A DNA stretch of 64,000 nucleotides from an uncultured Bacteroides sp. Its GTDB lineage: Bacteria; Bacteroidota; Bacteroidia; Bacteroidales; Bacteroidaceae. The stretch covers positions 124,001 to 188,000 of the forward strand of contig CANSEY010000003.1 in the NCBI GenBank assembly GCA_947646015.1, in the 5' to 3' direction. This document shows, piece by piece, positions 2,681 through 18,503 of the stretch. Below the pieces are notes generated by a model. That model saw only the letters and a list, made by a program, of their open reading frames with translations. It was not told where the DNA came from and searched no databases. Position numbers and translations under genes: made by a program. The first letter of the stretch is position 1; every line of letters begins with the position of its first letter.

Positions 2681-2688
2681 TATATTTG
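2681..2688 (+). promoter_or_regulatory. Bacteroides -7 element for the hybrid sensor gene
   Basis: TATATTTG fits the TAnnTTTG consensus of the main Bacteroides sigma factor and lies 22 bases before the sensor start codon. No clear TTTG -33 box was found at the ideal spacing. Confidence 0.55.
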
Positions 2689-2710
2689 CGTTTATAAATA
2701 CGGAATAACT

Positions 2711-5149
2711 ATGAATAGACATAAATTAGCCTTTTCTTTGATCGGTATTTTCATCGTTCAATTATCTTACGCCGGATATTTTAAGCACATAGGTAGAGAA
2801 GAAGGTCTTTCGCAATCGTCCGTTATGGCTATCTATCAAGATAAGCTGGGTAGAATGTGGTTTGGTACACGTGAAGGAGTCAACATCTACAATAGTAATA
2901 AGATGGCCGTTTATAAGGCATGGATACAAAACGGAAATCGACCGGATCAGAAAATCTTGATAGGGAATGAGGTTAGTGCCATTACAGGGAGTCAAAACGG
3001 AGATGTGTTTCTGATCGTTGACCATGCTTTACTGAAATACGATATTCGTAAAGAGACTTTCGAACGTCTGCGTCAAGGATCTGTCTATGCTCTAACATCT
3101 CATGCCGGTGAGATATGGTGTGCCGGACACGACTCTATTTTCCGATACAACCCCCAAAACAATCAATTAGACTTTCAATTAAAAACAGGTATATCATCCA
3201 TCAACTATCTGACGATAAATGGCAACAGGTTTTATATCGGTGCCAAAGAAGGTCTATATACCACGGAAAACAAAGGGAGGGTTCAATGCCTGATCCCTAA
3301 AGTAGATGTTTATCGTATTTTTCAAAGCTCCTGTCAGGAACTTTGGGTAGGCTGCCGTACACAAGGGCTATACCGTATCAACCGGAACGGACGAATCAAC
3401 CGCATTCCTTATGACCCCTCATCACCAAACGGCATTTCCAGCGAACAAATACGTGAATTTGTAGAAGATCAGCAAGGAAACATCTGGTTCGGGACCTTCG
3501 ACGGTTTACAAAAATATGATCCAAGCACCCAAACCTACAGCCTCATCAAGCAAGAACAACGCCCGGGAGGACTCAGCCATTCTTCTATATTTTCACTCTA
3601 TCAGGATGTACAAGGCACTATCTGGATAGGTAGTTATTATGGAGGAGTCAACTACTTTAACCCGGATAACAACGCATTCAATTACTACACTTATAATCCC
3701 GATCGTAGCGACTGTCTCAACTACCCGTTCGCCGGGGCTATGACCGAGGACAAAGATCACCACCTATGGATATGCACCGATGGTGGTGGATTGGCATGCT
3801 TAGACCGACAAGCGGGACATTTCACCACTTACACTGCCGGAGGCCCCAACTCACTGCCCCACAATAATCTGAAAAGTATTTGTTACGACCCTAAAAGAGA
3901 CTGCTTATATATCGGTACACATATGGGAGGGCTCTCCCGGTTCGACCGCAAGACCGGACGTTTTTACAACTACCTCAATCATTCCACAAAAGGCCTCAAA
4001 GAGCCCAATGATGTTATCTTCCAAGTATCTTTCTATAACGACCAGTTAATCGTTTCCGCTCGTAACGGAGTTTTTTCCATGAATCCCGATACAAATGAAT
4101 TCCGCTTGCTTTATGACGGATATTACTATCAAACTTTCACCATTGATCCCAAAGGTTTTCTCTGGTTGTCGGCAGGTACTAACTTATATAGTATAAATCT
4201 GAAACACCCTGAAGAAGTCAAATCATTCAGTCTGCCTGCATCCATTGGACAGTTCGGCATCAGCAAGATTTTGAAAGGTAACAATCAATATCTTTATATC
4301 GCCACTTTAGGTTCAGGACTTTTTTGTTATAACGAACAAACTCAGACCTGCATCAACTATACTCCCGAGCAGAACCAATTACTCAGTAATTATTGCTATA
4401 ATCTTCTACAGACTTCGACAGACAACATACTCATCACAAGTGATCGGGGTATCACACTGTTTAATCCAACCACCGAATCATTCCGTTCCATTGAACTGGA
4501 TAACGGACTGTCCCTTTCATCCATCATTAATGGTTGTGGTGTATGGATGTGTAGTGACCATACTATATTTATCGGAGGTACAGGCGGGCTTAGTTCTTTT
4601 CTGGAGAAAGACCTGAACAAAGAATATCCCAAACCTAAACTCTATTTTTCAAGTTTATCCGTCAACAACGCACGGATAAGTCCGGATGACAAAAGTCGTA
4701 TACTGACAGAAGGGCTCCCTTTTGTCCGGGAAATAAATCTAAATGCCACCCAAAATAACCTGACTATTGAGTTTGCTTCTTCCAACTATGTGGATATACT
4801 GAATAATACTTGGTATGAGTATCAGTTAGAAGGTTTTGACAAGCAATGGTCACTCACCTCACAAACAAGCCTGAAATACACCAATCTGGATACTGGAGAC
4901 TACGTGTTACACGTACGGCAAAAAGGCAACTCCCTGAAAATGCGCAAAGCACAGGAGATCTTATTACAAATACATATCAATACCCCATGGTACCTTACTT
5001 GGTGGGCATGGCTCAGTTACATCACTATCAGCATTTCAGTGACCTATTTTATCTGGCGCGAAAAAAGTTCCAGAAGAACTTTGGCGATATTACGGCAAAG
5101 CCTCTTTTCTCTTACCTATCATCAGATTCTTTTTAATCCAGCTATTTAA
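2711..5149 (+). CDS. Hybrid two-component system, sensor half (split by DNA inversion)
   Basis: An 812-residue protein: signal peptide (1-21), a long two-component regulator propeller region with many repeats of the type GNIWFGT.DGLQKYD and GTIWIGSYYGGVNYF, a Y_Y_Y Ig-like domain (about 690-755), and a membrane helix at about 764-781 followed by WREKSSRR. In intact Bacteroides HTCS proteins a kinase follows here. Instead the frame runs through a 24-bp repeat (5065-5088) into 20 unrelated residues and stops. The missing half lies on the opposite strand at 5243-6898, ending in the same repeat. As it stands the product would be a membrane-anchored periplasmic sensor with no signalling output. 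Inversion would join Ala792 in frame to the kinase (total about 1341 residues). The neighbouring susC/susD genes are the expected targets. Confidence 0.93.
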   Translation: MNRHKLAFSLIGIFIVQLSYAGYFKHIGREEGLSQSSVMAIYQDKLGRMWFGTREGVNIYNSNKMAVYKAWIQNGNRPDQKILIGNEVSAITGSQNGDVFLIVDHALLKYDIRKETFERLRQGSVYALTSHAGEIWCAGHDSIFRYNPQNNQLDFQLKTGISSINYLTINGNRFYIGAKEGLYTTENKGRVQCLIPKVDVYRIFQSSCQELWVGCRTQGLYRINRNGRINRIPYDPSSPNGISSEQIREFVEDQQGNIWFGTFDGLQKYDPSTQTYSLIKQEQRPGGLSHSSIFSLYQDVQGTIWIGSYYGGVNYFNPDNNAFNYYTYNPDRSDCLNYPFAGAMTEDKDHHLWICTDGGGLACLDRQAGHFTTYTAGGPNSLPHNNLKSICYDPKRDCLYIGTHMGGLSRFDRKTGRFYNYLNHSTKGLKEPNDVIFQVSFYNDQLIVSARNGVFSMNPDTNEFRLLYDGYYYQTFTIDPKGFLWLSAGTNLYSINLKHPEEVKSFSLPASIGQFGISKILKGNNQYLYIATLGSGLFCYNEQTQTCINYTPEQNQLLSNYCYNLLQTSTDNILITSDRGITLFNPTTESFRSIELDNGLSLSSIINGCGVWMCSDHTIFIGGTGGLSSFLEKDLNKEYPKPKLYFSSLSVNNARISPDDKSRILTEGLPFVREINLNATQNNLTIEFASSNYVDILNNTWYEYQLEGFDKQWSLTSQTSLKYTNLDTGDYVLHVRQKGNSLKMRKAQEILLQIHINTPWYLTWWAWLSYITISISVTYFIWREKSSRRTLAILRQSLFSLTYHQILFNPAI
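5065..5088 (+). repeat. Left 24-bp inverted repeat of the HTCS switch
   Basis: This 24-bp stretch is exactly repeated in reverse complement at 6891-6914. It encodes SSRRTLA in the sensor frame, just after the membrane helix. It also contains an internal dyad, AAGTTC-CAGAA-GAACTT, which resembles the paired arms and short spacer of tyrosine-recombinase crossover sites. Confidence 0.93.
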
Positions 5150-5242
5150 ATAGACCATGAGTCCATATTGATTAAATAGTCTTCTTTACGAGCATAAATT
5201 TACTTTCAGATGTTATTCCCCTTATCTGGTATCCGCCTTAGG

Positions 5243-6898
5243 TCATTTAAGATTTTCCTGTTTAGCTCCTTTGCGATATTCCATCGGAGTAACGTTATAT
5301 TGATTTTTAAAACAACGGCTGAAATAGCGTGGAGAACCGAAACCTAATCTATCGGATATTTCCGCTACCTGTAAATAAGGTTCGTTCTTTAACATCAGCG
5401 ATGCTATTTTCAACCGGTGATTTAGAATAAATTCATTGGGTGTCATCCCTGTCAATGCTTTAAATTTGGTGTGCAACAATGTTCGCCCCATTCCAAGTTC
5501 CTGACATAACATACCAATATCAAAATCCTCATTATCAATATGTTTATCTACCACCTTAATCACTCTATCCAAGAAACCTTTATCTATTGGATTAGCTGCC
5601 AACAGGTTGATTTCTAAAATCTGATCTTTGGCAAAACGGCTTTGCATCAACAAGCGGTTACGAATCAAATTATTGCAACGGGTTATTAAGATTTTTGCAT
5701 TGAAAGGCTTGGTGATATAATCGTCTGCTCCACGGCGTAGCCCTTCTATATTTTGATCTACAGTGTCAAGTGCTGTCAACAACACAACCGGAATGTGACA
5801 CAGGTTTATGTTATTCTTTATTTTCAGGCACATCTCCGTTCCTGTCATTACCGGCATCATAACATCACTCACTATCAAATCGGGAACTTCTGCAAAAGCC
5901 TGTTTCAGTCCCTCCTCGCCATTAGCAGCCGTCACCACCTGATAAAGTGATGAAAATATTTCTTTGAGTACCTGCAAAAGCTCCACATTATCTTCTACCA
6001 ATAATACTTTCCGTTTCCCTTCCCGTTCATCTATCAAGGGAGTTTCGAATGTAGAATCATCCTTTTTCATAAAATTCTCATCCGGTATGGTATTCTCTTG
6101 TACCATAGGTTCCTTTTCCGGAGATTCCAGAAAAACGACTTCAGTATCCTTTTCAAAACAATCACGGTTTTTAGGTAACTTCACAATAAAACAGCTTCCT
6201 TCATTTAACTCACTTTCTACCTCAATTGTACCATGATGTAGCTGAATGATACTTTTCGTTAATGCGAGTCCGATACCAGTGCCAACATGAAGCGCTTTAT
6301 TCCGATTGTCCGCCTGATAAAAACGATCGAATATCCGTTCCTGTTCTTCTTTACTAATGCCATTCCCGGAATCCTTAACTGCAATAACAACCTGATCCGG
6401 TGTGGTAGAGGTTAATATGCTTATTTCTCCTTTATCCGGAACATGTTTAAATGCGTTCGAAAGCAAATTAAACAAAACTTTTCGCATTTGCCAGTCATCT
6501 ATCCAAATAGATATATCCTGCTCCAACAGCTTCAGATGGTAAGAAATGGACTTCTGAGAGGCATAAGCAGAAAAAGAAAGATAGACTTCTTCTAAAAATG
6601 TATTCAGACTTTGTTCCGATAGTTTTAATTGGATATAGTTCTGATCGAATTTCCGAAAGTCAAGCAATTCTGAAATTAGAAGTTTCATTTGTTGGGCATG
6701 CTTCCTTATCCTGAAAATACTATTATGCAAAGATGGAGGTATCGTATTCTTTTGTAACATAAGCTCTACCTGACTTATAATAAGAGTTAAAGGAGTACGA
6801 AACTCATGGCTCACATTGGTAAAGAATCGTAGTTTAGCTTGGTTCATCTCTTCAATATGTTCCTTTTCAATACGTTCTTTCTCCAGCGACATCGCCAA
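5243..6898 (-). CDS. Hybrid two-component system, kinase-receiver-AraC half (split by DNA inversion)
   Basis: 551 residues with no signal peptide or membrane helix. Order: HisKA with H-box FFTNVSHEFRTPLTLI (His31); HATPase_c with the N-box LLSNAFKHVPDKG, DSGNGIS and GTGIGLAL (about 140-245); receiver domain with VEDN, SDVMMP (phospho-Asp) and TKPFN (about 295-410); and a C-terminal AraC-type helix-turn-helix ending YRKGAKQ. The listed start is TTG inside the right repeat; the first ATG is at 6892. An in-frame TAA lies six codons upstream of the repeat, and no good ribosome site is seen. In this orientation it may be silent or yield a soluble kinase lacking its sensor. It belongs to the sensor encoded at 2711 and would be continuous with it after inversion. 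Confidence 0.92.
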   Translation of the reverse strand: MAMSLEKERIEKEHIEEMNQAKLRFFTNVSHEFRTPLTLIISQVELMLQKNTIPPSLHNSIFRIRKHAQQMKLLISELLDFRKFDQNYIQLKLSEQSLNTFLEEVYLSFSAYASQKSISYHLKLLEQDISIWIDDWQMRKVLFNLLSNAFKHVPDKGEISILTSTTPDQVVIAVKDSGNGISKEEQERIFDRFYQADNRNKALHVGTGIGLALTKSIIQLHHGTIEVESELNEGSCFIVKLPKNRDCFEKDTEVVFLESPEKEPMVQENTIPDENFMKKDDSTFETPLIDEREGKRKVLLVEDNVELLQVLKEIFSSLYQVVTAANGEEGLKQAFAEVPDLIVSDVMMPVMTGTEMCLKIKNNINLCHIPVVLLTALDTVDQNIEGLRRGADDYITKPFNAKILITRCNNLIRNRLLMQSRFAKDQILEINLLAANPIDKGFLDRVIKVVDKHIDNEDFDIGMLCQELGMGRTLLHTKFKALTGMTPNEFILNHRLKIASLMLKNEPYLQVAEISDRLGFGSPRYFSRCFKNQYNVTPMEYRKGAKQENLK

Positions 6899-6914
6899 AG
6901 TTCTTCTGGAACTT
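6891..6914 (-). repeat. Right 24-bp inverted repeat of the HTCS switch
   Basis: This is the exact reverse complement of 5065-5088. On the minus strand it encodes the same residues in the same frame and leads straight into the kinase. Identity stops immediately outside the 24 bases on both sides, which defines the recombination site. Confidence 0.93.
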
Positions 6915-6926
6915 CTACTTAGTTAA

Positions 6927-6959
6927 GAACAATTAGTGCCTATATTGCGAACAAAAATA
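6927..6959 (+). promoter_or_regulatory. Candidate AraC-domain operator, copy A
   Basis: The 33-base stretch beginning GAACAATTAGTG is 26/33 identical to the stretch at 7151-7183. It lies just outside the invertible segment in the 358-bp gap before susC. Paired direct repeats upstream of susC are expected binding sites for the HTCS AraC domain; binding is inferred. Confidence 0.5.
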
Positions 6960-7150
6960 GCATAGAGGGGGCTCTTCCACGACATAGTTCAACCATGTTA
7001 TTCATATTTTGTAAAGTTTAATAGTATACGGATAATGAAAAAGAACAAATTATGTCCAATATTTCTATCTAATTAAGTATCCTATCGCAAAATTTTGTAC
7101 ATAAAAGACATATAGGAAATACGGATTAAGGCAGACTCCAAATTGACTAT

Positions 7151-7183
7151 GAATAATTAGTGTCCTTATTGAGAATAAAAGTA
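7151..7183 (+). promoter_or_regulatory. Candidate AraC-domain operator, copy B
   Basis: Second copy of the 33-base direct repeat, beginning GAATAATTAGTG. It ends 26 bases before the susC -7 element, so an activator bound here would touch RNA polymerase. Apart from the two copies and the -7 element, nothing else was recognised between 6915 and 7256. Confidence 0.55.
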
Positions 7184-7208
7184 TCACATCGGATCAGATC
7201 AGTTACCG

Positions 7209-7216
7209 TAGTTTTG
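7209..7216 (+). promoter_or_regulatory. -7 element of the susC operon
   Basis: TAGTTTTG matches TAnnTTTG and lies 41 bases before the susC ATG. No TTTG -33 box is evident, which fits an activator-dependent promoter. Confidence 0.55.
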
Positions 7217-7256
7217 TGGTGTATTTAACACTTTTATTAACTCAATCTAAAGTATT

Positions 7257-10200
7257 ATGAGAAAAAGCAAATTACATTTGCTACCCTTATCTTCTAAAAG
7301 GGTACTTGTAAGTACATCGTTAATAATGCTTTTAAGCGGTAGCGCTTGGGCTGTTTCTTCACAAGAGACAGTTGAAAACGGAGATGCGATCACAGCAGTC
7401 CCCCAACAGCGCAGAACGGTTAAAGGTATTGTAAAAGATGCAAATGGAGAACCGATTATCGGAGCCAACGTCATTGTGAAAGGTAATAAAACTATTGGCG
7501 TCATCACAAACCTGAACGGAGAATTTAGTCTCGAAGTACCGTCCAACGCAACACTGCAAATCTCTTACATCGGCTATCTTAATAAAGAAGTCAAAGTAAG
7601 TGGCAACCAGGTGTCTTTCAACATCCAATTGGAAGAAGACAGCAAAACACTCGATGAGGTAGTAGTAGTTGGATATGGCACACAGAAAAAGGCCAATTTA
7701 ACAGGTGCCGTATCTTCCGTTGATTTTGAAGAACAAACTAAATCACGCCCCATTACGACAGTATCTTCGGCATTAGCCGGTCTAAGTCCGGGACTTCAAG
7801 CCAGTTCAGGCTCGGCAATGCCGGGAGAAGATAACACAACCTTACGGGTACGTGGTAACGGCACAATGAATAATGCCTCACCTTTGATTATCATAGATGG
7901 TATGGAAGGTTCATTGAATGCTATTAACCCTCAGGACATAGAAAATATCTCTATTCTAAAAGATGCAGCTTCCTGTGCTATTTATGGTGCCCGTGCTGCC
8001 AATGGAGTCATCTTAGTCACAACAAAAAGCGGTGATCGAGACAAAATACAGGTAAACTATAGTGGACGCATCTCTTTCAACAGCCCGACACGCATGATCG
8101 AAACGATGAGTAACTATGCGGATTATATGGAATTAATGAACGAATCTTGCGAAAATGTTGGCTCCGGTACTCTTTTTGACCAAAAGTATATCGATTTGTG
8201 GAGAGAGAAATCAAAAGATCCCAATGGAGTAAATGAAAACGGTGTTCCTAATTACATCGCATACCCAAATACCAACTGGCTGAAAGAATTATACTCAGGA
8301 GGTATGATACACGAACATAACCTTTCAGTCTCAGGAGGATCTAACAAAATTCGTTTCCTATTGTCAGCCCGCTATCAGGATAATGAAGGTATTGTAGACA
8401 ATACAGCCAACAAGACCTATTCTGTACGTGCCAATATTGAAGCCAATCCAACTCAATGGTTGACTTTAGGTACGCGTACTTATGCTTCACAAATGGATCG
8501 TGAAGTGGGTGACTTTAGCAATGCCAATACTTTCCTCCGACAATCTACAGCCGGTACTTATCCCGAATGGAACGGAAGTTTCGGCTACCCGGAATGTCCG
8601 GACGAACGTGCAACAGCCAATAACCCACTATATAAACTGGCACGGAATGATGGCTTCAAACGCTACAACCGTTTCAACACGACCCTATTTAGCAAGGTCA
8701 AGTTCTTTAAAGATTTAAGCTGGGATTTCAATTTCAATTACAACCGTTACATCTACGAAACCCGCCAATGGGGGGTACCTGCTTATCAGACACGTTTCAG
8801 TGACGGGGTAATTGTCGATGGTATCACTCCTCCTTCTCAATTAAGTACAAGTTTCGGTTATGAGTCCAATTACTCTTATACATTGGAAAACCTGTTAAAC
8901 TACCATCATACATTTGCTCAGAAACACGATGTATCCGCGCTGTTAGGCTATCAGGAATTCTATAAGAATTACTATACTGTAGATGCCGCAAAGAAAGGTT
9001 TGATCGACGAATCACTGAACCAGTTTGATGAAGCAACCGAAATGACAAGTACCAAAGGTGCAACCCAGGATTATGCCACACGTTCTGTATTTGGACGCGT
9101 GAACTATGCATATAATTCCCGGTATTTATTTGAGGCAAATTTCCGTTATGACGGCTCCTCACGTTTCCACAAAGATCATCGTTGGGGATTCTTCCCTTCC
9201 TTATCAGGTGCATGGCGCATCTCAGAAGAAAGCTTCATGGAAAATACCCGTACCTGGCTGGATAACCTGAAAGTCCGTGCATCCTGGGGTAAATTAGGTA
9301 ACTCTGAAATTGGTAACTACGAATACATGTCGGTATACAGTACCACCAACGCAGTATTTGGAAATGCCTTAAATTCTGCATTGTATATGGGTGCCATCGC
9401 CAATAGCTTACTGAAATGGGAATCTACCACCTCTGTCAACTTTGGTATTGATGTTAATTTATTAAAGAACCGTCTGAGCATAAGTGCCGACCTGTATCAA
9501 AAGAAAACTGACGGTATCTTATACCGCCCGACTATTCCTTATGTATTCGGAACAATGACTGCCCCCCGTCAGAACCTCGCCAAAGTGAGCAATAAGGGAG
9601 TCGAGTTATCACTGGGATGGCGTGATAACATAGGAGGGGTAAACTACTCCATTAACGGTAACTTCTCATACAACAAAAGCAATATCGATGCCTATAACGG
9701 CACTTATGAAAGAACATGGGTAGAAGATCCGAATAACAAACTGACCGGTGGTAAATGGGAAGATAATATCGGTAAAGTGTCCAGTGGTGGCACAACACCC
9801 ATTGTTGAAGGCCGCATGATGAACGAATACTATTTACGGAACGTTTATCATGGCAATGGCTCTTACTACAATGCAGATGGCAGCGTAAACCCTCAAGGAG
9901 GACCTAAGACCGGTATGATCCGTACAGAAAAAGATATGGCATGGGTGAAAGATATGATCGCAGCCGGATATGAATTTCAACCGGGGAAAACGGTTGCTAA
10001 AAACAAGATCTGGTATGGTGATTACATCTATGCCGACTCCAATAATAATGGAGTATATGGCGATGATAATGACTATACTTTCCAAAAAACTTCCAATAAG
10101 CCTAAATACAATTTCGGTTTTCAGGCCTCTGCCGCATGGAAAGGATTCGACCTCTCTATGGTATGGGCAGGAGCTGCCGGATTCAGCATATATTGGGGGG

Positions 10201-10610
10201 CAACCACAGGATACAACGCCGCATCTACTGAATGGGGTAGTACTATCGCACAACGGGTTGCTGAAAATCATTATTTCTACAATCCCGAAAATCCGGATGA
10301 TCCACGTACCAACATCAACGCAAAATATCCGCGTATGGCTTATATAGACGGCTATGTACAAAATCGTCATGGCAATACAACCTTATGGCTGTACAAAGGT
10401 GATTACATTAAATTGAAGAACCTGTCTCTAGGCTATACTCTACCGAAAAACTGGGTTTCAAAAATTGCTATGCAAAATGCACGTGTTTATGTTTCAGCTG
10501 AAAATCTGCTGACAATTACCGGATTTGAAGGCCAAGACCCGGAATCTGCTACCGGTATGGGCTATTCTCCGTTTAGGACAATTGCAATAGGTGCCAATAT
10601 AACATTCTAA
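7257..10610 (+). CDS. susC: SusC-like TonB-dependent outer membrane transporter
   Basis: 1117 residues: signal sequence (cleavage likely near 34), a carboxypeptidase-like regulatory domain (about 53-135, GIVKDANGEPIIGANVIVKG), the SusC motif LDEVVVVGYGTQKK, a plug domain with PLIIIDGMEGSL and DAASCAIYGARAANGVI, then a 22-strand barrel ending in a terminal aromatic-type strand (AIGANITF). With SusD it forms the outer membrane complex that binds and imports oligosaccharides using TonB energy. It is 18 bases from susD and is probably activated by the HTCS encoded upstream, when that gene is in the intact orientation. Confidence 0.97.
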   Translation: MRKSKLHLLPLSSKRVLVSTSLIMLLSGSAWAVSSQETVENGDAITAVPQQRRTVKGIVKDANGEPIIGANVIVKGNKTIGVITNLNGEFSLEVPSNATLQISYIGYLNKEVKVSGNQVSFNIQLEEDSKTLDEVVVVGYGTQKKANLTGAVSSVDFEEQTKSRPITTVSSALAGLSPGLQASSGSAMPGEDNTTLRVRGNGTMNNASPLIIIDGMEGSLNAINPQDIENISILKDAASCAIYGARAANGVILVTTKSGDRDKIQVNYSGRISFNSPTRMIETMSNYADYMELMNESCENVGSGTLFDQKYIDLWREKSKDPNGVNENGVPNYIAYPNTNWLKELYSGGMIHEHNLSVSGGSNKIRFLLSARYQDNEGIVDNTANKTYSVRANIEANPTQWLTLGTRTYASQMDREVGDFSNANTFLRQSTAGTYPEWNGSFGYPECPDERATANNPLYKLARNDGFKRYNRFNTTLFSKVKFFKDLSWDFNFNYNRYIYETRQWGVPAYQTRFSDGVIVDGITPPSQLSTSFGYESNYSYTLENLLNYHHTFAQKHDVSALLGYQEFYKNYYTVDAAKKGLIDESLNQFDEATEMTSTKGATQDYATRSVFGRVNYAYNSRYLFEANFRYDGSSRFHKDHRWGFFPSLSGAWRISEESFMENTRTWLDNLKVRASWGKLGNSEIGNYEYMSVYSTTNAVFGNALNSALYMGAIANSLLKWESTTSVNFGIDVNLLKNRLSISADLYQKKTDGILYRPTIPYVFGTMTAPRQNLAKVSNKGVELSLGWRDNIGGVNYSINGNFSYNKSNIDAYNGTYERTWVEDPNNKLTGGKWEDNIGKVSSGGTTPIVEGRMMNEYYLRNVYHGNGSYYNADGSVNPQGGPKTGMIRTEKDMAWVKDMIAAGYEFQPGKTVAKNKIWYGDYIYADSNNNGVYGDDNDYTFQKTSNKPKYNFGFQASAAWKGFDLSMVWAGAAGFSIYWGATTGYNAASTEWGSTIAQRVAENHYFYNPENPDDPRTNINAKYPRMAYIDGYVQNRHGNTTLWLYKGDYIKLKNLSLGYTLPKNWVSKIAMQNARVYVSAENLLTITGFEGQDPESATGMGYSPFRTIAIGANITF

Positions 10611-10627: not shown

Positions 10628-12475
10628 ATGAAACTATTAAATAAATTATTCATATTAACAGCCACAGCAATTGCTATAAGCAGTTGCCAAGGAGATTTAC
10701 TGGACACAAAGCCATATGATAAAGCATCATCGGGCAGTATGTGGAGCAACGAAAACTTTTGTACTATGGGAGTAGCATCTATCTACGCTACCCTGCGCGA
10801 AGGTTATGTAGCAAAAGAGGCTTATCTAATGGAGGCATTCAGCGTGGGAGCAACCTGCCGTGACAACGATTATCCGCTACTGGCCGGTACAGCTTCCATC
10901 GGTTCCGGAATATTCTCAGACTATTGGAAACAACATTATGCAGGTATCTACCGTGCCAATGATGCCATTGTACATCTACCCGACGCACCGATAAGTGAAA
11001 GCGTAAAAGGTAAATTATTATCCGAAGCAAAAGTATTGCGTGCATTTTATTATTACAAACTGAATGCAGTTTTCAGGGGTGTTCCTTATTATAATACGCC
11101 TATGGAACTTGATCAGGCAGACAAACCACGTGAAAGCGAAGAGAATATATGGAATTTCTGCATACAAGATTTAACCGACGCAATAAATGATCCGAATTTT
11201 CCCGACCGTATCGCTGCCGGTAAAGCAGAATGGGGTCATGTCACCAAATCAGTGGCTTATGCATTACGTGGAAAAATCTATCTATGGACCAAAGAATGGA
11301 GCAAAGCGGAAGCAGATTTCCGTAAAGTAGGTGAATTGGGACATTCATTATTTCAGGATGGGTACAAGCAACTCTTCAAAGAAGCTAATGAACAGAGTGA
11401 TGAAGCTATCTTCTCTTTGCAGTGTATCGATAATAATGGTAGCACTTACGGAAATTCCATGAGTTTCCGTTATGGTGGTCGTACCACATTTGGTTCTTGC
11501 TGGAACACTATGTTAGCCAGTGTGGATTTTGTAGAAACCTACGAAAATATAGACGGCAGTAAATTTAACTGGGATGAATACATTCCGGGATTCTCAAGCT
11601 TAGATATTAAAGACCGTGAAGTATTCTTCTTGCGTAATACTGATCCGGCAACAGTAAAAGCACAGTATCGCGAAATCGGCTTTGACGGCACGGAAGAGGC
11701 ATTAGACGACATGGTAAAAAAAATAAAAGCCAAAGTAGACGGACGTCTGGAGAAGTTGAGTGACAAGGCAAAAGCATTATATCTCCCGGCAGGAAACGAG
11801 GCTCGTATCAAAGCTGCTTATGACAGCCGCGATCCTCGTTTAGCCCAAACTGTCATCACTCCATATGCTACATATGACGGTTCGGGAAACAGTGTAGACC
11901 ACACCTTCACTTCACGCTGGCCCTACTATGGTGCTGACACCGATTATCCTTATGACTTACGTACTGACACTCAGAGCCATTTATACTATTTGTTCCGCAA
12001 ATTTGTTGCTGAAGGTTCAAGTGAGATGACCAATCGTGAACAATCTCCGATTGACCTGCCAATTATCCGCTACGCAACTGTCGTCATAGGATTGGCAGAA
12101 GCATTGAATGAGCAGGGTAAAACCGATGAGGCCATCGAATGGCTGAATAAAGTACGCCAACGTGCCGGTGTTGCACTGTTGAACAGCAATACTGCCACTA
12201 TGGTTCAGGGACAGGAAGATATGCGCGTTCGTATCCAGAATGAATTCCGCTGGGAAACAGCAGGTGAAGGAGTTGACTTTTACGAAGAACTCCGTTGGAA
12301 AACATGGAAAGAAAGTAAATTTAATAATGCTGATGGTACAGCCGGGATGAAAGATGTATGGGGGACTATCACCTATCCTTACACATGGGGAGGAGACCAA
12401 TATTATGTATGGCCAATCCCAAAACATGAAACTGATATGAACAAATCCCTGACCCAGAATTCGGGCTGGAATTAA
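10628..12475 (+). CDS. susD: SusD/RagB-like surface glycan-binding lipoprotein
   Basis: 615 residues with a lipoprotein signal (ISSC, Cys about 20). The helical TPR-like scaffold of SusD is recognised from MWSNENFCTMGVASIYATLREGY, SEAKVLRAFYYYKLN, VRQRAGV and RIQNEFRWETAGEGVDFYEELRW near the C-terminus, ending in the usual LTQNSGWN. It caps the SusC barrel and captures glycan at the cell surface. It is co-transcribed with susC. A 351-base gap follows, holding an REP-like palindrome and a weak promoter, so the enzymes may have their own start of transcription. Confidence 0.97.
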   Translation: MKLLNKLFILTATAIAISSCQGDLLDTKPYDKASSGSMWSNENFCTMGVASIYATLREGYVAKEAYLMEAFSVGATCRDNDYPLLAGTASIGSGIFSDYWKQHYAGIYRANDAIVHLPDAPISESVKGKLLSEAKVLRAFYYYKLNAVFRGVPYYNTPMELDQADKPRESEENIWNFCIQDLTDAINDPNFPDRIAAGKAEWGHVTKSVAYALRGKIYLWTKEWSKAEADFRKVGELGHSLFQDGYKQLFKEANEQSDEAIFSLQCIDNNGSTYGNSMSFRYGGRTTFGSCWNTMLASVDFVETYENIDGSKFNWDEYIPGFSSLDIKDREVFFLRNTDPATVKAQYREIGFDGTEEALDDMVKKIKAKVDGRLEKLSDKAKALYLPAGNEARIKAAYDSRDPRLAQTVITPYATYDGSGNSVDHTFTSRWPYYGADTDYPYDLRTDTQSHLYYLFRKFVAEGSSEMTNREQSPIDLPIIRYATVVIGLAEALNEQGKTDEAIEWLNKVRQRAGVALLNSNTATMVQGQEDMRVRIQNEFRWETAGEGVDFYEELRWKTWKESKFNNADGTAGMKDVWGTITYPYTWGGDQYYVWPIPKHETDMNKSLTQNSGWN

Positions 12476-12826: not shown

Positions 12827-14734
12827 ATGAAGAAATTATTAATATTCACTCTCTTGCTATGCTGTACTGTAAAAGCTCTCAGCTATACAGAACGGAACTA
12901 TCTTCAAAAACAGGCCAACGTAAGCAGTTTGCAGGAAGTGCTTATATTAAATCAACAATGGGTCACTTATCCTGCTTATACCGACCGAACCGGATGGGAC
13001 ACTTTTTTAGGCTCTTTCAAGAATGAATGTATCCTTCGCGGAGAGAAGCAGTTGAATTATCAATGGCAGGTTGTGAAAGCTACTGATTATATGGAATTTG
13101 AACGCAGCGGCAACCGTAGCGTTATGGAAACTCCTTTCGCCAATAATAACAATGCCATAGCCGACCTGCTACTCGCTGAACTCGCAGAAGGGAAAGGACG
13201 ATTTATCGATCAGCTGATCAACGGTGTATATCATTCCTGCGAGATGACTTCCTGGGCATTGGCCGCCCATTTGAATGCACAACAGTCTCACCGCTCATTA
13301 CCCGATTTTAAAGAAAACATCATAGACCTGACAGCAGGTGACTTAGGCTCTTTACTCGCATGGACCTATTATTACATGCACAAAGAGTTTGACAAGCTCA
13401 ATCCTGCTATATCCGAACGTTTACGGCATACGCTCCAACAGCGTATATTGGATCCTTACATGAATAACGATCACTTCTGGTGGATGGCAGTGAACTATAG
13501 ACCGGGAATGTTGGTCAACAACTGGAATCCTTGGTGTAACAGCAACGCCTTAATGTGTTTTATGCTGCTTGAAAATGATAAAGAAATGTTAGCGAAGGCA
13601 ATATACCGCAGTATGGTTTCGGTAGATAAATTCATCAACTATACCCATACCGACGGTGCATGTGAGGAAGGCCCCTCCTATTGGGGACATGCCGCCGGAA
13701 AAATGTTTGATTATCTGGAATTACTGTCAGCCGTTACCGGGGGAACTGTCTCCATCTTCGATAATCCCATGATAAAGAATATGGGCGAATATATATCACG
13801 TTCATACGTGGGCAAAGGATGGGTGGTTAATTTCGCTGATGCTTCGGCGAAAGGCAGTGGAGACGCTCCCTTGATATTCCGGTATGGCAAGGCTGTAAAC
13901 AGTAACGAAATGAAAGGATTCGCTGCTATGATTAACACCAATAAACTCCCTTCCGGACGCGATATATACCGTACGCTTGCTGCTATAAAAATTGCGAACG
14001 AACTAAAAGAAACTCAAGCGGCACATCTGACTCCCCCATTCTCCTGGTATCCGGAAACCGAATTCTGCTATATAACTGACAATAAAGGAAACTTTCTGGC
14101 CGCTAAAGGAGGATATAACGACGAGAGCCATAATCATAATGACGCAGGTACCTTCTCTTTCTGGATAGACCAAACTCCTTTTCTTATTGATGCCGGAGTA
14201 GGGACCTATACACGCCAGACATTCAGCAAGGATCGCTACACCATTTGGACTATGCAGAGCAACTATCACAATCTCCCCCTGATTAATGGCGTCCCTCAGA
14301 AACACGGAGCAACATATAAAGCAACACAAGTACAAGCTGACAAGAGGAAAAACACATTCACAGCCAATATAGCGACAGCCTATCCGGCCGAAGCAGAAGT
14401 GGAATCATGGATACGTTCCTATTCACTTCAGAAAGGGCAATTACGGATTTCAGACTCTTTCCGTCTGACAACAGCCAAACAGCCTAATCAAATCAATTTC
14501 ATGACATGGGGGCAAGTGAATACGGAAATACCGGGAAAAATTCAATTGGAAGTAAAAGGAAAGAAAGCCTTTATAGAATATGATAAACAACTGTTCGATG
14601 TGAAAACAGAAACAATTCCATTAACAGATCCCCGGCTATCCAATGTATGGGGTAAATCGATTTATCGCATTACACTCACAGCAACAAACATCTATAAAAC
14701 AGGAAATTATTCTTTTATCATAAAAAAACAATAA
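12827..14734 (+). CDS. Heparinase II/III-family polysaccharide lyase
   Basis: 635 residues with a signal peptide (about 1-20). The N-terminal two thirds is an (alpha/alpha) toroid with NNWNPWCNSNAL and DGACEEGPSYWGHAAGKMFDYLE, the Tyr/Asn/Trp-rich catalytic cleft region. The C-terminal third is the anti-parallel beta domain with GGYNDESHNHNDAGTFSFW and NYHNLPLINGVPQ, where lyase family members keep metal- or substrate-binding His. Such enzymes cleave uronic-acid polymers by beta-elimination, giving unsaturated ends. It sits 3 bases before a GH88 hydrolase that removes those ends. The PL subfamily (PL12, PL21, PL33 or other) cannot be set by eye. Confidence 0.85.
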   Translation: MKKLLIFTLLLCCTVKALSYTERNYLQKQANVSSLQEVLILNQQWVTYPAYTDRTGWDTFLGSFKNECILRGEKQLNYQWQVVKATDYMEFERSGNRSVMETPFANNNNAIADLLLAELAEGKGRFIDQLINGVYHSCEMTSWALAAHLNAQQSHRSLPDFKENIIDLTAGDLGSLLAWTYYYMHKEFDKLNPAISERLRHTLQQRILDPYMNNDHFWWMAVNYRPGMLVNNWNPWCNSNALMCFMLLENDKEMLAKAIYRSMVSVDKFINYTHTDGACEEGPSYWGHAAGKMFDYLELLSAVTGGTVSIFDNPMIKNMGEYISRSYVGKGWVVNFADASAKGSGDAPLIFRYGKAVNSNEMKGFAAMINTNKLPSGRDIYRTLAAIKIANELKETQAAHLTPPFSWYPETEFCYITDNKGNFLAAKGGYNDESHNHNDAGTFSFWIDQTPFLIDAGVGTYTRQTFSKDRYTIWTMQSNYHNLPLINGVPQKHGATYKATQVQADKRKNTFTANIATAYPAEAEVESWIRSYSLQKGQLRISDSFRLTTAKQPNQINFMTWGQVNTEIPGKIQLEVKGKKAFIEYDKQLFDVKTETIPLTDPRLSNVWGKSIYRITLTATNIYKTGNYSFIIKKQ

Positions 14735-14737
14735 AAC

Positions 14738-15949
14738 ATGAACTTAAAACCTTTATTGGGAGCAGCCTGCGCAATGATATGTGTGGCTTGCTCAAACCAC
14801 AAACCCACAGTACCGTCTTTTATAACAGAGAATGTAGAATTTGCCAAAGCACAACTTGGTTTGGCCATCGACACCATCGAAGCAAGCGGAAAATGTCTCA
14901 ATCCTGTAACTCTCAATAGAGATGGATCTGTATATTACTGCGGATATGCCGATTGGCGCAGTGGATTTTTTCCCGGTAGCATCTGGTATCTGTACGAACT
15001 GACAGGTGACACCAGCTATCTTCCACTGGCCAGAAAATATACTGAAGCCATTCGCCCGGCCGAGCACCTGACCTGGCATCACGATATAGGATTCATCATT
15101 AATTGCAGTTTTGGTAACGGCCTAAGGCTCGCTCCCGATACAGCTGCATATAAAAACGTAATGATACAGGCAGCCAAATCACTCTGTACCCGTTTTCGCC
15201 CTAATGCCGGAGTCATTCAAAGCTGGGATGTAAAAGGCAATAGCTGGCAAAGTGAAAGAGGCTGGGAATGTCCGGTTATCATTGACAACATGATGAACCT
15301 GGAACTTCTGTTCGAAGCAACCAAACTGTCCGGTGATTCCACTTTCTATAAAGTAGCCGTAGCACACGCAGACCGTACTCTTTCCGAGCATTTCCGCCCT
15401 GATGGAAGTTGCTATCACGTAGTGGACTACAATATTTCGGACGGCTCCGTACGTCATAAACAGACAGCACAAGGATATGCTGATGAATCGGTTTGGTCAC
15501 GCGGGCAGGCATGGGCTATCTATGGCTTCACTATTTGCTATCGTGAAACGAAAGACCGCAAATATCTGGACCAGGCACTGAAAACATTCAATAGGATGAA
15601 AAATGATCCGCACATGCCCGAAGATCTGATACCTTACTGGGACATGGATGCACCCAATATACCCAATGAACCCCGGGACGCTTCTTCTGCATCCTGCATC
15701 GCTTCTGCCCTGTATGAAATCAGCACATATGCAGTATCCGATGCCGCTTCTTACAAAGCATACGCAGACCGCATTATGCATAGTCTCGCCTCACCTGACT
15801 ATCGGGCCGCATTGGGCACTAACGGCAATTTTATCCTGATGCATAGCGTAGGCAGTATTCCGCACAATAGTGAAATTGACGTACCTCTGAACTATGCAGA
15901 CTACTACTTTCTGGAAGCCCTGAAGCGTAGAAAAGATTTAGATAAATAA
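14738..15949 (+). CDS. GH88 unsaturated glucuronyl hydrolase (lipoprotein)
   Basis: 403 residues with a lipobox VACS (Cys about 19). The GH88 fold is supported by WRSGFFPGSIWYLYELTGD, the WHHDIGF motif (one conserved Asp) and IIDNMMNLELL (the catalytic Asp), then WSRGQAWAIYGF and the C-terminal PLNYADYYFLEAL. It hydrates the 4,5-unsaturated uronic acid left on the non-reducing end by a polysaccharide lyase and so releases it. It is tightly coupled to the lyase gene upstream. Together they show that the target contains uronic acid. Confidence 0.93.
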   Translation: MNLKPLLGAACAMICVACSNHKPTVPSFITENVEFAKAQLGLAIDTIEASGKCLNPVTLNRDGSVYYCGYADWRSGFFPGSIWYLYELTGDTSYLPLARKYTEAIRPAEHLTWHHDIGFIINCSFGNGLRLAPDTAAYKNVMIQAAKSLCTRFRPNAGVIQSWDVKGNSWQSERGWECPVIIDNMMNLELLFEATKLSGDSTFYKVAVAHADRTLSEHFRPDGSCYHVVDYNISDGSVRHKQTAQGYADESVWSRGQAWAIYGFTICYRETKDRKYLDQALKTFNRMKNDPHMPEDLIPYWDMDAPNIPNEPRDASSASCIASALYEISTYAVSDAASYKAYADRIMHSLASPDYRAALGTNGNFILMHSVGSIPHNSEIDVPLNYADYYFLEALKRRKDLDK

Positions 15950-15969
15950 TTTTATAATAAAGAAGTATC

Positions 15970-16878
15970 ATGAAAACACAACTGTTTAAATTTGCCTGTT
16001 TAATTATCTGCTTATTAACGATAGCTCCCAATTGCCATGCCGGCAGCAAGTGGAAAGCTAAACATGTAGTCTTAATTGGACTGGACGGCTGGGGTGCCTA
16101 CAGTGTAGAGAAAGCTAATATTCCCCATATCAAACAATTAATGAATGATGGTTCTTACACACTGACCAAACGCTCTGTACTCCCTTCGTCCAGTGCAGTA
16201 AACTGGGCATCTATGTTCATGGGAGCAGGCCCGGAACTACACGGATACACAACCTGGAATTCAAGTACTCCGGATCTTCCTTCGAAAGAATTAAGTAAAG
16301 ATGGCATTTTTCCAACTATATTCCAATTGCTCCGCGAAGCTGATCCGAAAGCTGAAATTGGCACTTTCTACGAATGGGTCGGCATCAAATATCTGGTGGA
16401 TACGCTGGCAGTAAACAAATATAACCAAGGGATTAACTATGAAAAATATCCTACGGAACTATGCGAAAAAGCCGTGAAGTACATTAAAGAGAAAAAGCCG
16501 ACTTTAACACTTATTGCCTGGGATAATCCGGATCATGTGGGACATAAGGAAGGTCATGATACACCAGCCTATTATCACAAACTCGAAGAAATAGACGGAT
16601 ACATCGGCAAAGTAATGAATGCGGTGAAAGAAGCCGGAATACTGGATGAAACGATTTTTATAATAACATCCGACCATGGTGGAATCAATAAAGGGCACGG
16701 AGGAAAGACAATGCAGGAGATGGAGACTCCGTTCATCATCTCGGGGAAAAATATCAAGAAAGGGCATGAAATTCAGGCCAGCATGATGCAGTTTGACGTA
16801 GCTGCTACCGTGGCTGCCATTTTCAAACTCAAGCAGCCACAAGTATGGATCGGAAGGCCCATAATGGAAGTATTTTAG
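15970..16878 (+). CDS. Alkaline phosphatase-like / type I phosphodiesterase family protein (secreted)
   Basis: 302 residues with a signal peptide (cleavage after CHA). Alkaline-phosphatase superfamily features: GLDGWGAYS near the N-terminus (metal Asp), LPSSSAVNWASMFMG (candidate nucleophilic Ser/Thr region), WDNPDHVGHKEGHD (metal Asp and His), TSDHGG and GHGG (metal Asp-His and His). It is shorter than most sulfatases and lacks the C-x-P-x-R sulfatase signature, so it is more likely a phosphodiesterase or phosphatase. Its place between GH88 and GH20 suggests removal of a phosphate-containing decoration from the glycan (inference). Confidence 0.8.
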   Translation: MKTQLFKFACLIICLLTIAPNCHAGSKWKAKHVVLIGLDGWGAYSVEKANIPHIKQLMNDGSYTLTKRSVLPSSSAVNWASMFMGAGPELHGYTTWNSSTPDLPSKELSKDGIFPTIFQLLREADPKAEIGTFYEWVGIKYLVDTLAVNKYNQGINYEKYPTELCEKAVKYIKEKKPTLTLIAWDNPDHVGHKEGHDTPAYYHKLEEIDGYIGKVMNAVKEAGILDETIFIITSDHGGINKGHGGKTMQEMETPFIISGKNIKKGHEIQASMMQFDVAATVAAIFKLKQPQVWIGRPIMEVF

Positions 16879-16911
16879 TAAGAAAGAATGCTAACAAGTT
16901 AAAGACATAGG

Positions 16912-18447
16912 ATGAAACGAACCAACAGAACATTATTCATTCATAATACAGCAAGAGGGAGAATAAAATTTCTTCTTCTTGCTCTATTTGCTTTTCAAGG
17001 CTTACAAGCACAAAAGCTATTCCCCGCTCCTTCTGCGATAGAGACACATAAAGGTACATTCTCTTATGACGAAGTTTCGGCTAAGTGTGTACGAACTACT
17101 ATCTCTAAGTCTCTACCTGCTATCGGTATAGAATACTCGGATGAAGCATATCAACTGGAAATTACACCGGATTCTATCTTCATTGATGCCACTTCTGTGA
17201 AAGGAGCATTTTATGCCCGCCAAGCCATTAAACAACTGGCACAGCACGAACGGGGCAAAATCCGCTGTTGCCGGATTTACAGTTCGCCACGCTACGCATG
17301 GCGCGGATTTATGCTCGATGAAAGCCGCCACTTCTTCGGCAAAGAGAAAGTTAAACAATACCTCGACTTAATGGCTTTACTCCATCTCAATGTATTCCAC
17401 TGGCATCTGACAGACGAACCGGGATGGCGAATTGAAATCAAAAAATACCCTAAGCTGACGAAAATAGGGGCCGTTGGCAATTGGCATGATGCCCAAGCAA
17501 CTCCGCAGTTCTATACACAGGACGATATACGAGAGATTGTGGCTTATGCGGCCGAACGCCAGATTATGGTGGTTCCTGAGTTCGATATGCCCGGACATGC
17601 CACAGCGGTCTGCCGCGCTTATCCCGAAGTATCGGGCGGAGGAGAAGGACGCTGGAAGCATTTCACATTCCATCCTTGCAAAGAAGAAACTTATCGTTTT
17701 ATCAGCGATGTACTCGATGAAATAGTAGCCCTCTTCCCGGCTCCCTATATCCATATTGGAGGTGATGAAGTGCACTACGGCAATCAGAACTGGTTCACAG
17801 ATCCTGAAATCCAGAACTTCATAAAGGAAAAAGGGCTGATCAATGAAACCGGACTGGAGCATTACTTCATCCGCCGTGCTGCCGATCTGGTAGCGGCCAA
17901 AGGTAAAAAAATGATTGGTTGGGACGAAATAGTGGACGCCGGTATCTCCCCCTCCAAAGCGTTGGTTATGTGGTGGCGCCACGACCGTAAGTACCAGTTG
18001 CTGAAAGCGCTTGAGCAAGGCTATCAGGTAGTCCTGACTCCACGTCGCCCGCTGTATGGCGATTTCGTACAGGATGCCTCACATAAAGTGGGACGCTATT
18101 GGGATGGATTCAATCCGTTGCAAGACATATATGCCTTCCCCGAACCGATCAGTCATCTTTTTAAAGGATACGAAGATCAGATACTGGGTATGCAGTTCAC
18201 ACTTTGGACCGAACGGATTGCAGACGGAAAACGGTTGGACTTCATGACCTTCCCACGCCTGATAGCACTGGCAGAATCTGCGTGGACATCGTCCAAAGAG
18301 AAAGACTGGAGTCGTTTCTGCATGCGGTTACCGTCTTTCCTGGAATATCTGAAGGAGCAAGGCATCTATTATTTCGATGTGATTCACCCACAAGAAACTC
18401 CCGAACCGGGCGGACCGGAGAAAGCGGACGTATTACAAAACGGATAG
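16912..18447 (+). CDS. GH20 beta-N-acetylhexosaminidase
   Basis: 511 residues. A GH20b N-terminal domain (about 35-125) precedes the (beta/alpha)8 barrel starting at YAWRGFMLDESRHFFGKEKVKQYLD. The catalytic Asp-Glu pair is in HIGGDEVHYGN. HWHLTDEPGWRIEIKKYPKL and VPEFDMPGHATA are typical. The enzyme removes terminal N-acetylglucosamine or N-acetylgalactosamine by substrate-assisted catalysis. The N-terminus has a basic stretch and then a hydrophobic run (KFLLLALFAFQGLQAQ), an acceptable signal peptide. It lies in the same direction as the lyase and GH88 genes with a 33-base gap. Confidence 0.93.
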   Translation: MKRTNRTLFIHNTARGRIKFLLLALFAFQGLQAQKLFPAPSAIETHKGTFSYDEVSAKCVRTTISKSLPAIGIEYSDEAYQLEITPDSIFIDATSVKGAFYARQAIKQLAQHERGKIRCCRIYSSPRYAWRGFMLDESRHFFGKEKVKQYLDLMALLHLNVFHWHLTDEPGWRIEIKKYPKLTKIGAVGNWHDAQATPQFYTQDDIREIVAYAAERQIMVVPEFDMPGHATAVCRAYPEVSGGGEGRWKHFTFHPCKEETYRFISDVLDEIVALFPAPYIHIGGDEVHYGNQNWFTDPEIQNFIKEKGLINETGLEHYFIRRAADLVAAKGKKMIGWDEIVDAGISPSKALVMWWRHDRKYQLLKALEQGYQVVLTPRRPLYGDFVQDASHKVGRYWDGFNPLQDIYAFPEPISHLFKGYEDQILGMQFTLWTERIADGKRLDFMTFPRLIALAESAWTSSKEKDWSRFCMRLPSFLEYLKEQGIYYFDVIHPQETPEPGGPEKADVLQNG

Positions 18448-18503
18448 AGAAATACCGATGATCTCAATAATAACATCATTAATCAATACATAATCAAGAA
18501 CAT

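What the first reader, a model, noticed from the sequence alone, without database searches (positions are those of the whole stretch)
2711..6914. A glycan-locus master regulator split by an intragenic DNA inversion switch
The sensor half (+ strand, 2711-5149) and the kinase-receiver-AraC half (- strand, 5243-6898) of one hybrid two-component regulator break exactly at two copies of a perfect 24-bp inverted repeat (5065-5088, 6891-6914). The reading frame is conserved across both: ACT TTG GCG AT then A or G. Flipping the 1.8-kb segment would give a 1341-residue protein, the normal size and domain order. Phase-variable invertible promoters are known in Bacteroides. Here the crossover would be inside the coding sequence, right after the membrane helix, and would decouple sensing from gene control for a whole PUL.
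Basis: partly seen in the sequence, partly recalled or inferred. Interest (0 to 1): 0.95.

Follow-up and report, generated by a model that had tools for sequence, protein, structure and literature searches.

The report
DNA flip splits a sugar sensor
In a Bacteroides close to B. fragilis, the gene for a regulator that likely controls a set of sugar-eating genes is cut in two at a pair of perfectly matching mirror-image DNA sites; flipping the piece between them would rejoin it into one normal-sized protein, and related genes are found in databases both joined and cut at this same point, so the bacteria likely switch this sensor by turning DNA around inside the gene.

Summary
The sensor half (+) and kinase-receiver-AraC half (-) of a hybrid two-component regulator (HTCS) break at a perfect 24-bp inverted repeat found nowhere else in the assembly; an in-silico flip gives an intact 1341-aa HTCS. 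Four of 158 genus genomes carry it, all split, both halves under strong purifying selection. New evidence: (i) the repeat holds AGTTC-N5-GAACT, a site class that also forms matched inverted pairs here, two of them directly upstream of susC-like genes; (ii) in frame the site encodes SSRRT: of 120 listed homologues, all 9 sensor-only proteins carry SSRRT, and none of the 105 without it is sensor-only; (iii) metagenomic relatives occur fused and split at this point, interleaved on trees (3-5 state changes). Against: no fused B. fragilis protein surfaced among 5.8 billion proteins, so there the fused state is rare or lost; the recombinase is unknown; the relatives' second site was not seen as DNA. 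Best reading: an intragenic inverton that joins or uncouples sensor and regulator, using a susC-promoter-type recombination site. New variant of a known kind.

The parts
2711..5149 (+). sensor half of the HTCS: Reg_prop propeller, Y_Y_Y, membrane helix, then a short tail after the site (812 aa)
   Evidence: dN/dS 0.06-0.10 among 4 genomes up to the site
5065..5088 (+). inverted repeat copy 1 (IR1), in frame, codes for SSRRTLA; core AGTTC-CAGAA-GAACT at 5066-5080
5065..6914 (.). predicted invertible segment (1850 bp including both arms)
   Evidence: inversion inferred
5089..5149 (+). split-state tail of the sensor; divergent (17 of the first 60 columns after IR1 vary among 4 genomes, against 0 of 24 in IR1 and 3 of 60 before it)
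5243..6892 (-). kinase-receiver-AraC half, ATG at 6892 (549 aa); open frame runs on to TTG 6898
   Evidence: dN/dS 0.05-0.14
6891..6914 (-). inverted repeat copy 2 (IR2); core at 6899-6913
6951..6959 (-). -7-like promoter element TATTTTTGT for the split kinase half, outside the invertible segment (predicted; no -33 TTTG in the 32 bases upstream)
   Evidence: consensus TANNTTTGY from PMC8748976 (passage)
6927..6951 (+). candidate HTCS operator 1, 12 bp from IR2 (predicted)
7151..7175 (+). candidate HTCS operator 2, 33 bp upstream of the susC -7-like element (predicted)
7209..7217 (+). -7-like element TAGTTTTGT of susC (predicted)
2681..2689 (+). -7-like element TATATTTGC of the sensor / fused gene (predicted)
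7257..10610 (+). susC-like TonB-dependent transporter of the polysaccharide utilization locus
10628..12475 (+). susD-like protein
12827..21811 (+). enzymes of the likely controlled locus: heparinase II/III-like, GH88, phosphodiesterase/sulfatase, GH20, GH2, DUF2264

Best explanation
The sensor half and the kinase-receiver-AraC half of one hybrid two-component regulator lie on opposite strands and break at a perfect 24-bp inverted repeat, and the 1.85-kb piece between is likely flipped by a site-specific recombinase acting in trans, which would switch the regulator between one membrane-bound protein and two separate halves. Fused state (predicted): the sensor promoter transcribes a 1341-aa HTCS that reads a periplasmic sugar signal and activates susC and the enzymes behind it. 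Split state (the one seen here): a membrane sensor without kinase, and a soluble kinase-receiver-AraC protein with its own predicted promoter outside the flipped piece; signal and gene control would be uncoupled. The crossover falls in AGTTC-N5-GAACT, the site class seen as matched inverted pairs upstream of susC-like genes in the same genome, so the recombinase of those pairs is the most likely enzyme. Shown: repeat, halves, open fused frame, site class, both states in relatives. Inferred: enzyme, reversibility in B. fragilis, effect on the locus.
For: Perfect repeat, unique in the assembly, in frame. Same split layout in 4 of 158 genus genomes, dN/dS 0.05-0.14 in both halves. Exact AGTTCNNNNNGAACTTNG hits over both strands, against the reversed-pattern control, in the six genomes searched: G014 14 vs 1, G081 18 vs 1, G124 21 vs 3, G056 10 vs 1, G133 11 vs 3, G134 1 vs 1. 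In the own genome four other inverted pairs with matching 5-base spacers (C25, C6, C29, C49; picked by eye, some arms with one core mismatch), those at C25 and C49 directly upstream of a susC-like gene; in G081 nested pairs in a susC/susD cluster. SSRRT and splitting go together: 9 sensor-only and 6 full length with SSRRT; without it 0 sensor-only and 105 of 1011 aa or more, of 120 listed (list). Seven other sensor-only relatives (65-70% identical) end soon after SSRRT, five with unrelated tails of more than 20 residues. Six fused relatives run through SSRRTL into the kinase. Split kinase P0199 is 96.5% identical to the kinase part of fused P0001. Trees: at least 4 (sensor) and 5 (kinase) changes of state, 3 and 3 when only the safest split rows count. 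Two split pairs share a longest-contig length, 6996 (P0123, P0201) and 12844 (P0127, P0206), as if on one contig. G056 carries a fused form with AAGTTCAAGAAGAACTTTG at the junction.
Against: No fused B. fragilis form: the best full-length hit to the fused protein was 73% identical over its last 642 residues (7995 candidates scored, best 120 listed), while split-kinase clusters hold 251 and 845 member sequences and the split-sensor cluster 2061 (members not inspected one by one). All 4 genomes are split. The relatives' second repeat was not seen as DNA; in G056, the only SSRRT relative with DNA, no second copy lies in the 12 kb examined, no second exact core on that contig, and the gene is frameshifted. 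No recombinase identified; none of the 41 PF00589 matches lies on the window's contig; serine recombinases were not searched. Conservation of IR2 alone is weak evidence (0 of 24 columns vary, against 51 of 342 beside it). Split kinase rows have no foreign tail, so contig-edge fragments cannot be told from true halves: plain for P0210 and possible for P0200 (contigs of 1518 and 1757 bp), not excluded for P0199. State labels are not clearly clustered on the trees (99 and 293 of 500 shuffles as low), which fits frequent switching but also mislabelled fragments. With one mismatch allowed the own genome has 56 hits against 33 control hits. None of the three -7-like elements has TTTG within the 32 bases upstream.
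Confidence: 0.74

Rival explanations
1. Frozen split: one past inversion at these sites became fixed in the B. fragilis lineage, and the halves now work as two separate proteins, a membrane sensor of unknown use and a soluble, signal-blind kinase-AraC regulator with its own promoter.
For: All 4 genomes split; no fused form listed; both halves under purifying selection; an ATG at the repeat edge and a -7-like element for the kinase half present in all 4 genomes; candidate operator beside it.
Against: Both repeat copies stay identical in 4 genomes; the split sensor tail is not conserved (17 of 60 columns vary); relatives change state repeatedly; the site belongs to a class of paired sites.
Confidence: 0.22
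2. Decayed regulator: the inversion inactivated the gene and the pieces are on their way out.
For: Shortened kinase clusters exist (P0204 401 aa, P0209 354 aa; contig-edge fragments possible); G056 is frameshifted.
Against: dN/dS 0.05-0.14 for both halves and intact frames in 4 genomes.
Confidence: 0.03
3. Assembly artefact at a repeat.
For: Inverted repeats can mislead assemblers.
Against: Same layout in 4 separate assemblies, two with the locus on a chromosome-sized contig; a 24-bp repeat is shorter than usual reads; flanks differ between genomes.
Confidence: 0.01

Closest known systems
Hybrid two-component system (HTCS) regulators of Bacteroides polysaccharide utilization loci
   Same: Domain set and order after the flip; position beside susC/susD; full-length SSRRT relatives of 1334-1340 aa.
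   Different: Here the chain is cut just after the membrane helix by an inverted-repeat site; of 105 listed relatives without SSRRT, 104 are 1304 aa or longer and one is a 1011-aa record named 'partial'.
Intragenic / gene-altering invertons (Chanin 2024; Milman 2023; known to me from reference lists and recall, papers not held)
   Same: Inverted repeats lying in coding sequence, flipping changes the protein; PMC11892184 says gene-intersecting invertons can give new isoforms (passage).
   Different: Here the flip would join or separate the input and output modules of one signalling protein, rather than swap a specificity domain or add a stop; found by comparison, not by reads.
Invertible susC/susD promoters of B. 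fragilis (Kuwahara 2004, Nakayama-Imaohji 2009: reference-list entries only)
   Same: AGTTC-N5-GAACT pairs with matching spacers, seen here by susC-like genes in G000 and G081; that these are the published switches is recalled.
   Different: The C25 and C49 pairs lie in non-coding DNA upstream of the gene; this one encloses 1.8 kb that is mostly coding and one arm is translated as SSRRTLA.
Phase-variable two-component system behind an invertible site (C. difficile Cdi6, PMC5903667, passages)
   Same: A signalling system under a DNA inversion.
   Different: There the site lies upstream of the operon and the proteins are unchanged.

Membership tests
HTCS | Propeller + Y_Y_Y sensor, membrane helix, HisKA/HATPase, receiver and AraC HTH in one chain | tested here: inconclusive
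   Met by the in-silico fused frame; not met by the sequence as it stands (two chains).
HTCS | Gene sits beside a susC/susD locus | tested here: met
   susC at 7257, susD at 10628.
Intragenic inverton | Inverted repeats with at least one arm inside a coding sequence | tested here: met
   IR1 in frame in the sensor; IR2 ends in the kinase start codon.
Intragenic inverton | Both orientations observed in one species | tested here: inconclusive
   B. fragilis: only split seen. Relatives: P0001 fused and P0199 split, kinases 96.5% identical, but their contigs were not seen and P0199 could be a contig-edge fragment.
Intragenic inverton | Inversion by a recombinase | not testable with these tools
   41 PF00589 matches in the genome, none on contig C3; no read data or assay.
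AGTTC-N5-GAACT paired-site class | Core motif in an inverted pair with identical spacer | tested here: met
   CAGAA in both arms; other pairs.
AGTTC-N5-GAACT paired-site class as invertible promoters | Pair encloses a promoter | tested here: inconclusive
   No TANNTTTGY in 5089-5245 on either strand; the coding rest of the segment was not scanned. Filed only as using this site class, not as an invertible promoter.
Shufflon | Three or more sites or alternative cassettes | tested here: not met
   Only two copies of the repeat in the assembly and two core sites in the window.

The most novel reading that the evidence does not exclude
A recombination site has become part of a receptor's coding sequence: SSRRTL is the translated crossover site, kept across a clade of sugar regulators, and a recombinase shared with the susC-promoter switches toggles them between a signal-reading membrane regulator and a signal-blind soluble regulator plus an empty receptor, so the choice of transporters and the ability to sense their sugar would be shuffled by one enzyme.
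Probability: 0.45. Interest if true: 0.87.

Novelty: new variant of a known kind. Interest (0 to 1): 0.74.

Why it matters
If right, it is a DNA switch acting on the wiring of signal transduction: it would connect or disconnect sensing and gene control inside one protein instead of turning a promoter on or off. It predicts cells in one clone that can and cannot respond to the same glycan, gives a sequence signature (SSRRT, with AGTTC-N5-GAACT in the DNA) for finding more, and links sensor switching to the susC-promoter switches. The same signature warns annotators that 'truncated' HTCS genes may be one state of a switch.

Tried and rejected
Looked for a fused B. fragilis form by searching the fused protein and the sensor: none listed. 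Looked for the 24-mer elsewhere: none in the own genome within 3 mismatches; 4 of 158 genus genomes. Viral contigs: 5 stretches with one match each, not followed. G022, first seen as an 835-aa HTCS frame, is interrupted beside an integrase-like open frame and no inverted repeat of 13 bp or more flanks it: set aside. G134 and G133 (61-63% identical, fused) lack SSRRT. A direct-repeat search in 6860-7260 found no family, so the two 25-bp candidate operators were noticed by eye; the pattern used was built from them, so the chance figure is circular. Left out of the trees: G056 (frameshifted), P0121 (internal duplication), P0122, P0195-P0198, P0203, P0204 and P0209 (B. fragilis-lineage copies, shortened or chimeric). 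P0125 and P0126 (two residues past SSRRTLA), P0200 and P0210 (short contigs) may be contig-end fragments; one search repeats the counts without these pairs: 4 and 5 changes, as before. Papers by Chanin, Milman and Kuwahara on invertons and B. fragilis inversions are not held, nor are three others tried; whether they list this locus could not be checked. Ten library searches showed no title or abstract start describing an HTCS split by inversion (one search listed 20 of 25); only passages of eight papers were read (and the listings). No structure prediction was run.

Full report
What is there. At 2711-5149 (+) lies the sensor half of a hybrid two-component regulator and at 5243-6892 (-) its kinase-receiver-AraC half. 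A perfect 24-bp inverted repeat, 5065-5088 and 6891-6914, sits at the two break points; within three mismatches it occurs nowhere else in the 4.9-Mb assembly. Flipping the segment in silico gives one 1341-aa open frame with the normal domain order. The break is a few residues after the membrane helix (sequence).

Not an accident of this assembly. Between them nucleotide identity of the halves runs from 93 to 99.6% and dN/dS is 0.05-0.14. Neither repeat copy varies (0 of 24 columns each); 3 of the 60 columns before IR1, 17 of the 60 just after it and 51 of the 342 between IR2 and susC vary. Constraint on the sensor frame thus drops at the edge of the repeat.

The site. Inside the repeat is AGTTC-N5-GAACT, inverted arms with a 5-base spacer. 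Exact AGTTCNNNNNGAACTTNG hits against the reversed-pattern control are 14 vs 1 (G014), 18 vs 1 (G081), 21 vs 3 (G124), 10 vs 1 (G056), 11 vs 3 (G133) and 1 vs 1 (G134) (near-palindromic sites can count on both strands). In the own genome the looser pattern (one mismatch) gives 56 against 33; by eye its list holds, besides ours, four inverted pairs with matching spacers, 257-402 bp apart (C25, C6, C29, C49), some arms with one core mismatch. The C25 and C49 pairs lie directly upstream of susC-like genes; the C29 and C1 contigs end within about 55 bases of copies of one site, the C1 copy at the N-terminal end of a susC-like frame. In G081 nested pairs sit in a susC/susD cluster. So the intragenic repeat uses a site class that elsewhere flanks susC upstream regions. 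That these are the published invertible susC/susD promoters is recalled, not read.

The peptide signature. Read in frame the core gives S S R R T. Among the 120 homologues listed for the sensor, 15 carry SSRRT: 9 are sensor-only and 6 full length; of the 105 without it, 104 are 1304 aa or longer and one is a 1011-aa record named partial (Fisher p about 5e-10, rows not independent; P0121 and P0122 among the nine are B. fragilis-lineage). Seven sensor-only relatives at 65-70% identity end soon after SSRRT. Five have unrelated tails (P0123, P0124, P0127, P0128, P0129), as expected when the frame runs past a crossover into other DNA; two end after two more residues (P0125, P0126). The six fused relatives continue through the same point into the kinase. 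Of nine split kinase rows of the relatives, eight begin at or within about 20 residues of it; P0210 begins further in, on a 1518-bp contig. P0199 (split) and the kinase part of P0001 (fused) are 96.5% identical; P0202 and P0002 89.4%. Kinase rows carry no foreign tail, so a contig edge cannot be excluded for them, P0199 included.

Trees. Built without the junction columns, sensors (22 rows, 5 of them outgroup) need at least 4 changes of state and kinases (24 rows, 5 outgroup) at least 5; well-supported branches force 4 in each. Leaving out the doubtful split rows gives 4 and 5; keeping as split only B. fragilis and the two relatives whose halves share a contig length gives 3 and 3. Splitting and rejoining, or repeated splitting, has therefore happened several times at one point. 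The labels are not clearly more clustered than shuffled ones (99 and 293 of 500 shuffles as low).

What speaks against switching in B. fragilis today. The fused protein's best full-length match is 73% identical, whereas split clusters are large (2061 members for P0122; 251 and 845 for P0195 and P0196). The fused state is thus rare, transient, selected against in sequenced cells, or lost. G056, the one SSRRT relative with DNA at hand, has the core at a fused junction but no second copy in the 12 kb examined, no second exact core on that contig, and several frameshifts. No PF00589 recombinase gene lies on the window's contig; serine recombinases were not searched. The enzyme would likely act in trans.

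How it most likely works. Three -7-like elements (TANNTTTGY, consensus from PMC8748976, passage) precede the sensor (2681), susC (7209) and, on the minus strand, the kinase half (6959) (51 such elements in the window, 0.27 expected per 342 bp; none of the three has TTTG within 32 bases upstream). The kinase one lies outside the flipped piece. Two similar 25-bp stretches, the only two of their kind in the genome by a pattern built from them, lie at 6927-6951 and 7151-7175; I read them as operators of this regulator, one by the susC promoter and one by the split kinase promoter (inference). Fused: one membrane HTCS from the sensor promoter. Split: a sensor without output and a soluble, separately expressed regulator, uncoupled from the sugar signal. 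Whether the soluble form is inactive, constitutive or self-regulated is open; I lean to signal-blind with the locus largely uninduced. The likely targets include susC/susD, a heparinase II/III-like enzyme, GH88, GH20, GH2 and a sulfatase/phosphodiesterase, which suggests a sulfated, uronate- and hexosamine-containing glycan (inference).

Known or new. Gene-intersecting invertons are a known kind (PMC11892184, passage; Chanin 2024 and Milman 2023 seen only in reference lists). Phase variation of a two-component system through an upstream invertible site is known (PMC5903667, passages). Splitting and joining the input and output modules of one sensor-regulator at a translated recombination site did not turn up in the listings; the library lacks the main primary papers, so an earlier listing of this locus cannot be excluded.

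Noticed in passing
window 6927-6951 and 7151-7175: Two similar 25-bp stretches (GAANAATTAGTGYCNWNATTGNGAA), the only two in the genome by a pattern built from them, flanking the kinase-side and susC-side promoters: candidate HTCS operators.
   Followed up: partly
L154 (G081:C1:1071500-1089900), sites 2492, 8002, 15853, 15901: Nested AGTTC-N5-GAACT pairs around a susC/susD cluster; two susC-like frames at its ends start with the same residues: a shufflon-like susC/susD switch.
   Followed up: partly
L153 (G081:C1:2828500-2837500), sites 3463 and 4932: A 1.47-kb inverted pair (spacer TTACG) just after an open frame, enclosing two similar open frames on opposite strands: possibly another coding inverton with alternative C-terminal cassettes.
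   Followed up: no
L057 (G056:C106), core at contig 2449-2466: A fused relative with the core site in frame but several frameshifts and no partner repeat in the 12 kb examined.
   Followed up: partly
L036 (G022:C6), 5763-8267: Another HTCS frame is cut at 835 aa just upstream of an integrase-like open frame: likely an integrated element in the gene.
   Followed up: no
P0198, P0203: B. fragilis-like kinase halves that change near residue 398 into a different AraC-like end (P0198) or an end with PF00486 (P0203); assembly chimeras or real domain swaps.
   Followed up: no
G000 contigs C1, C29 and C90, ends: Contigs of the window's assembly end at or within about 55 bases of AGTTC-N5-GAACT-like copies, as expected if the sites are repeated or in mixed orientation.
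   Followed up: partly
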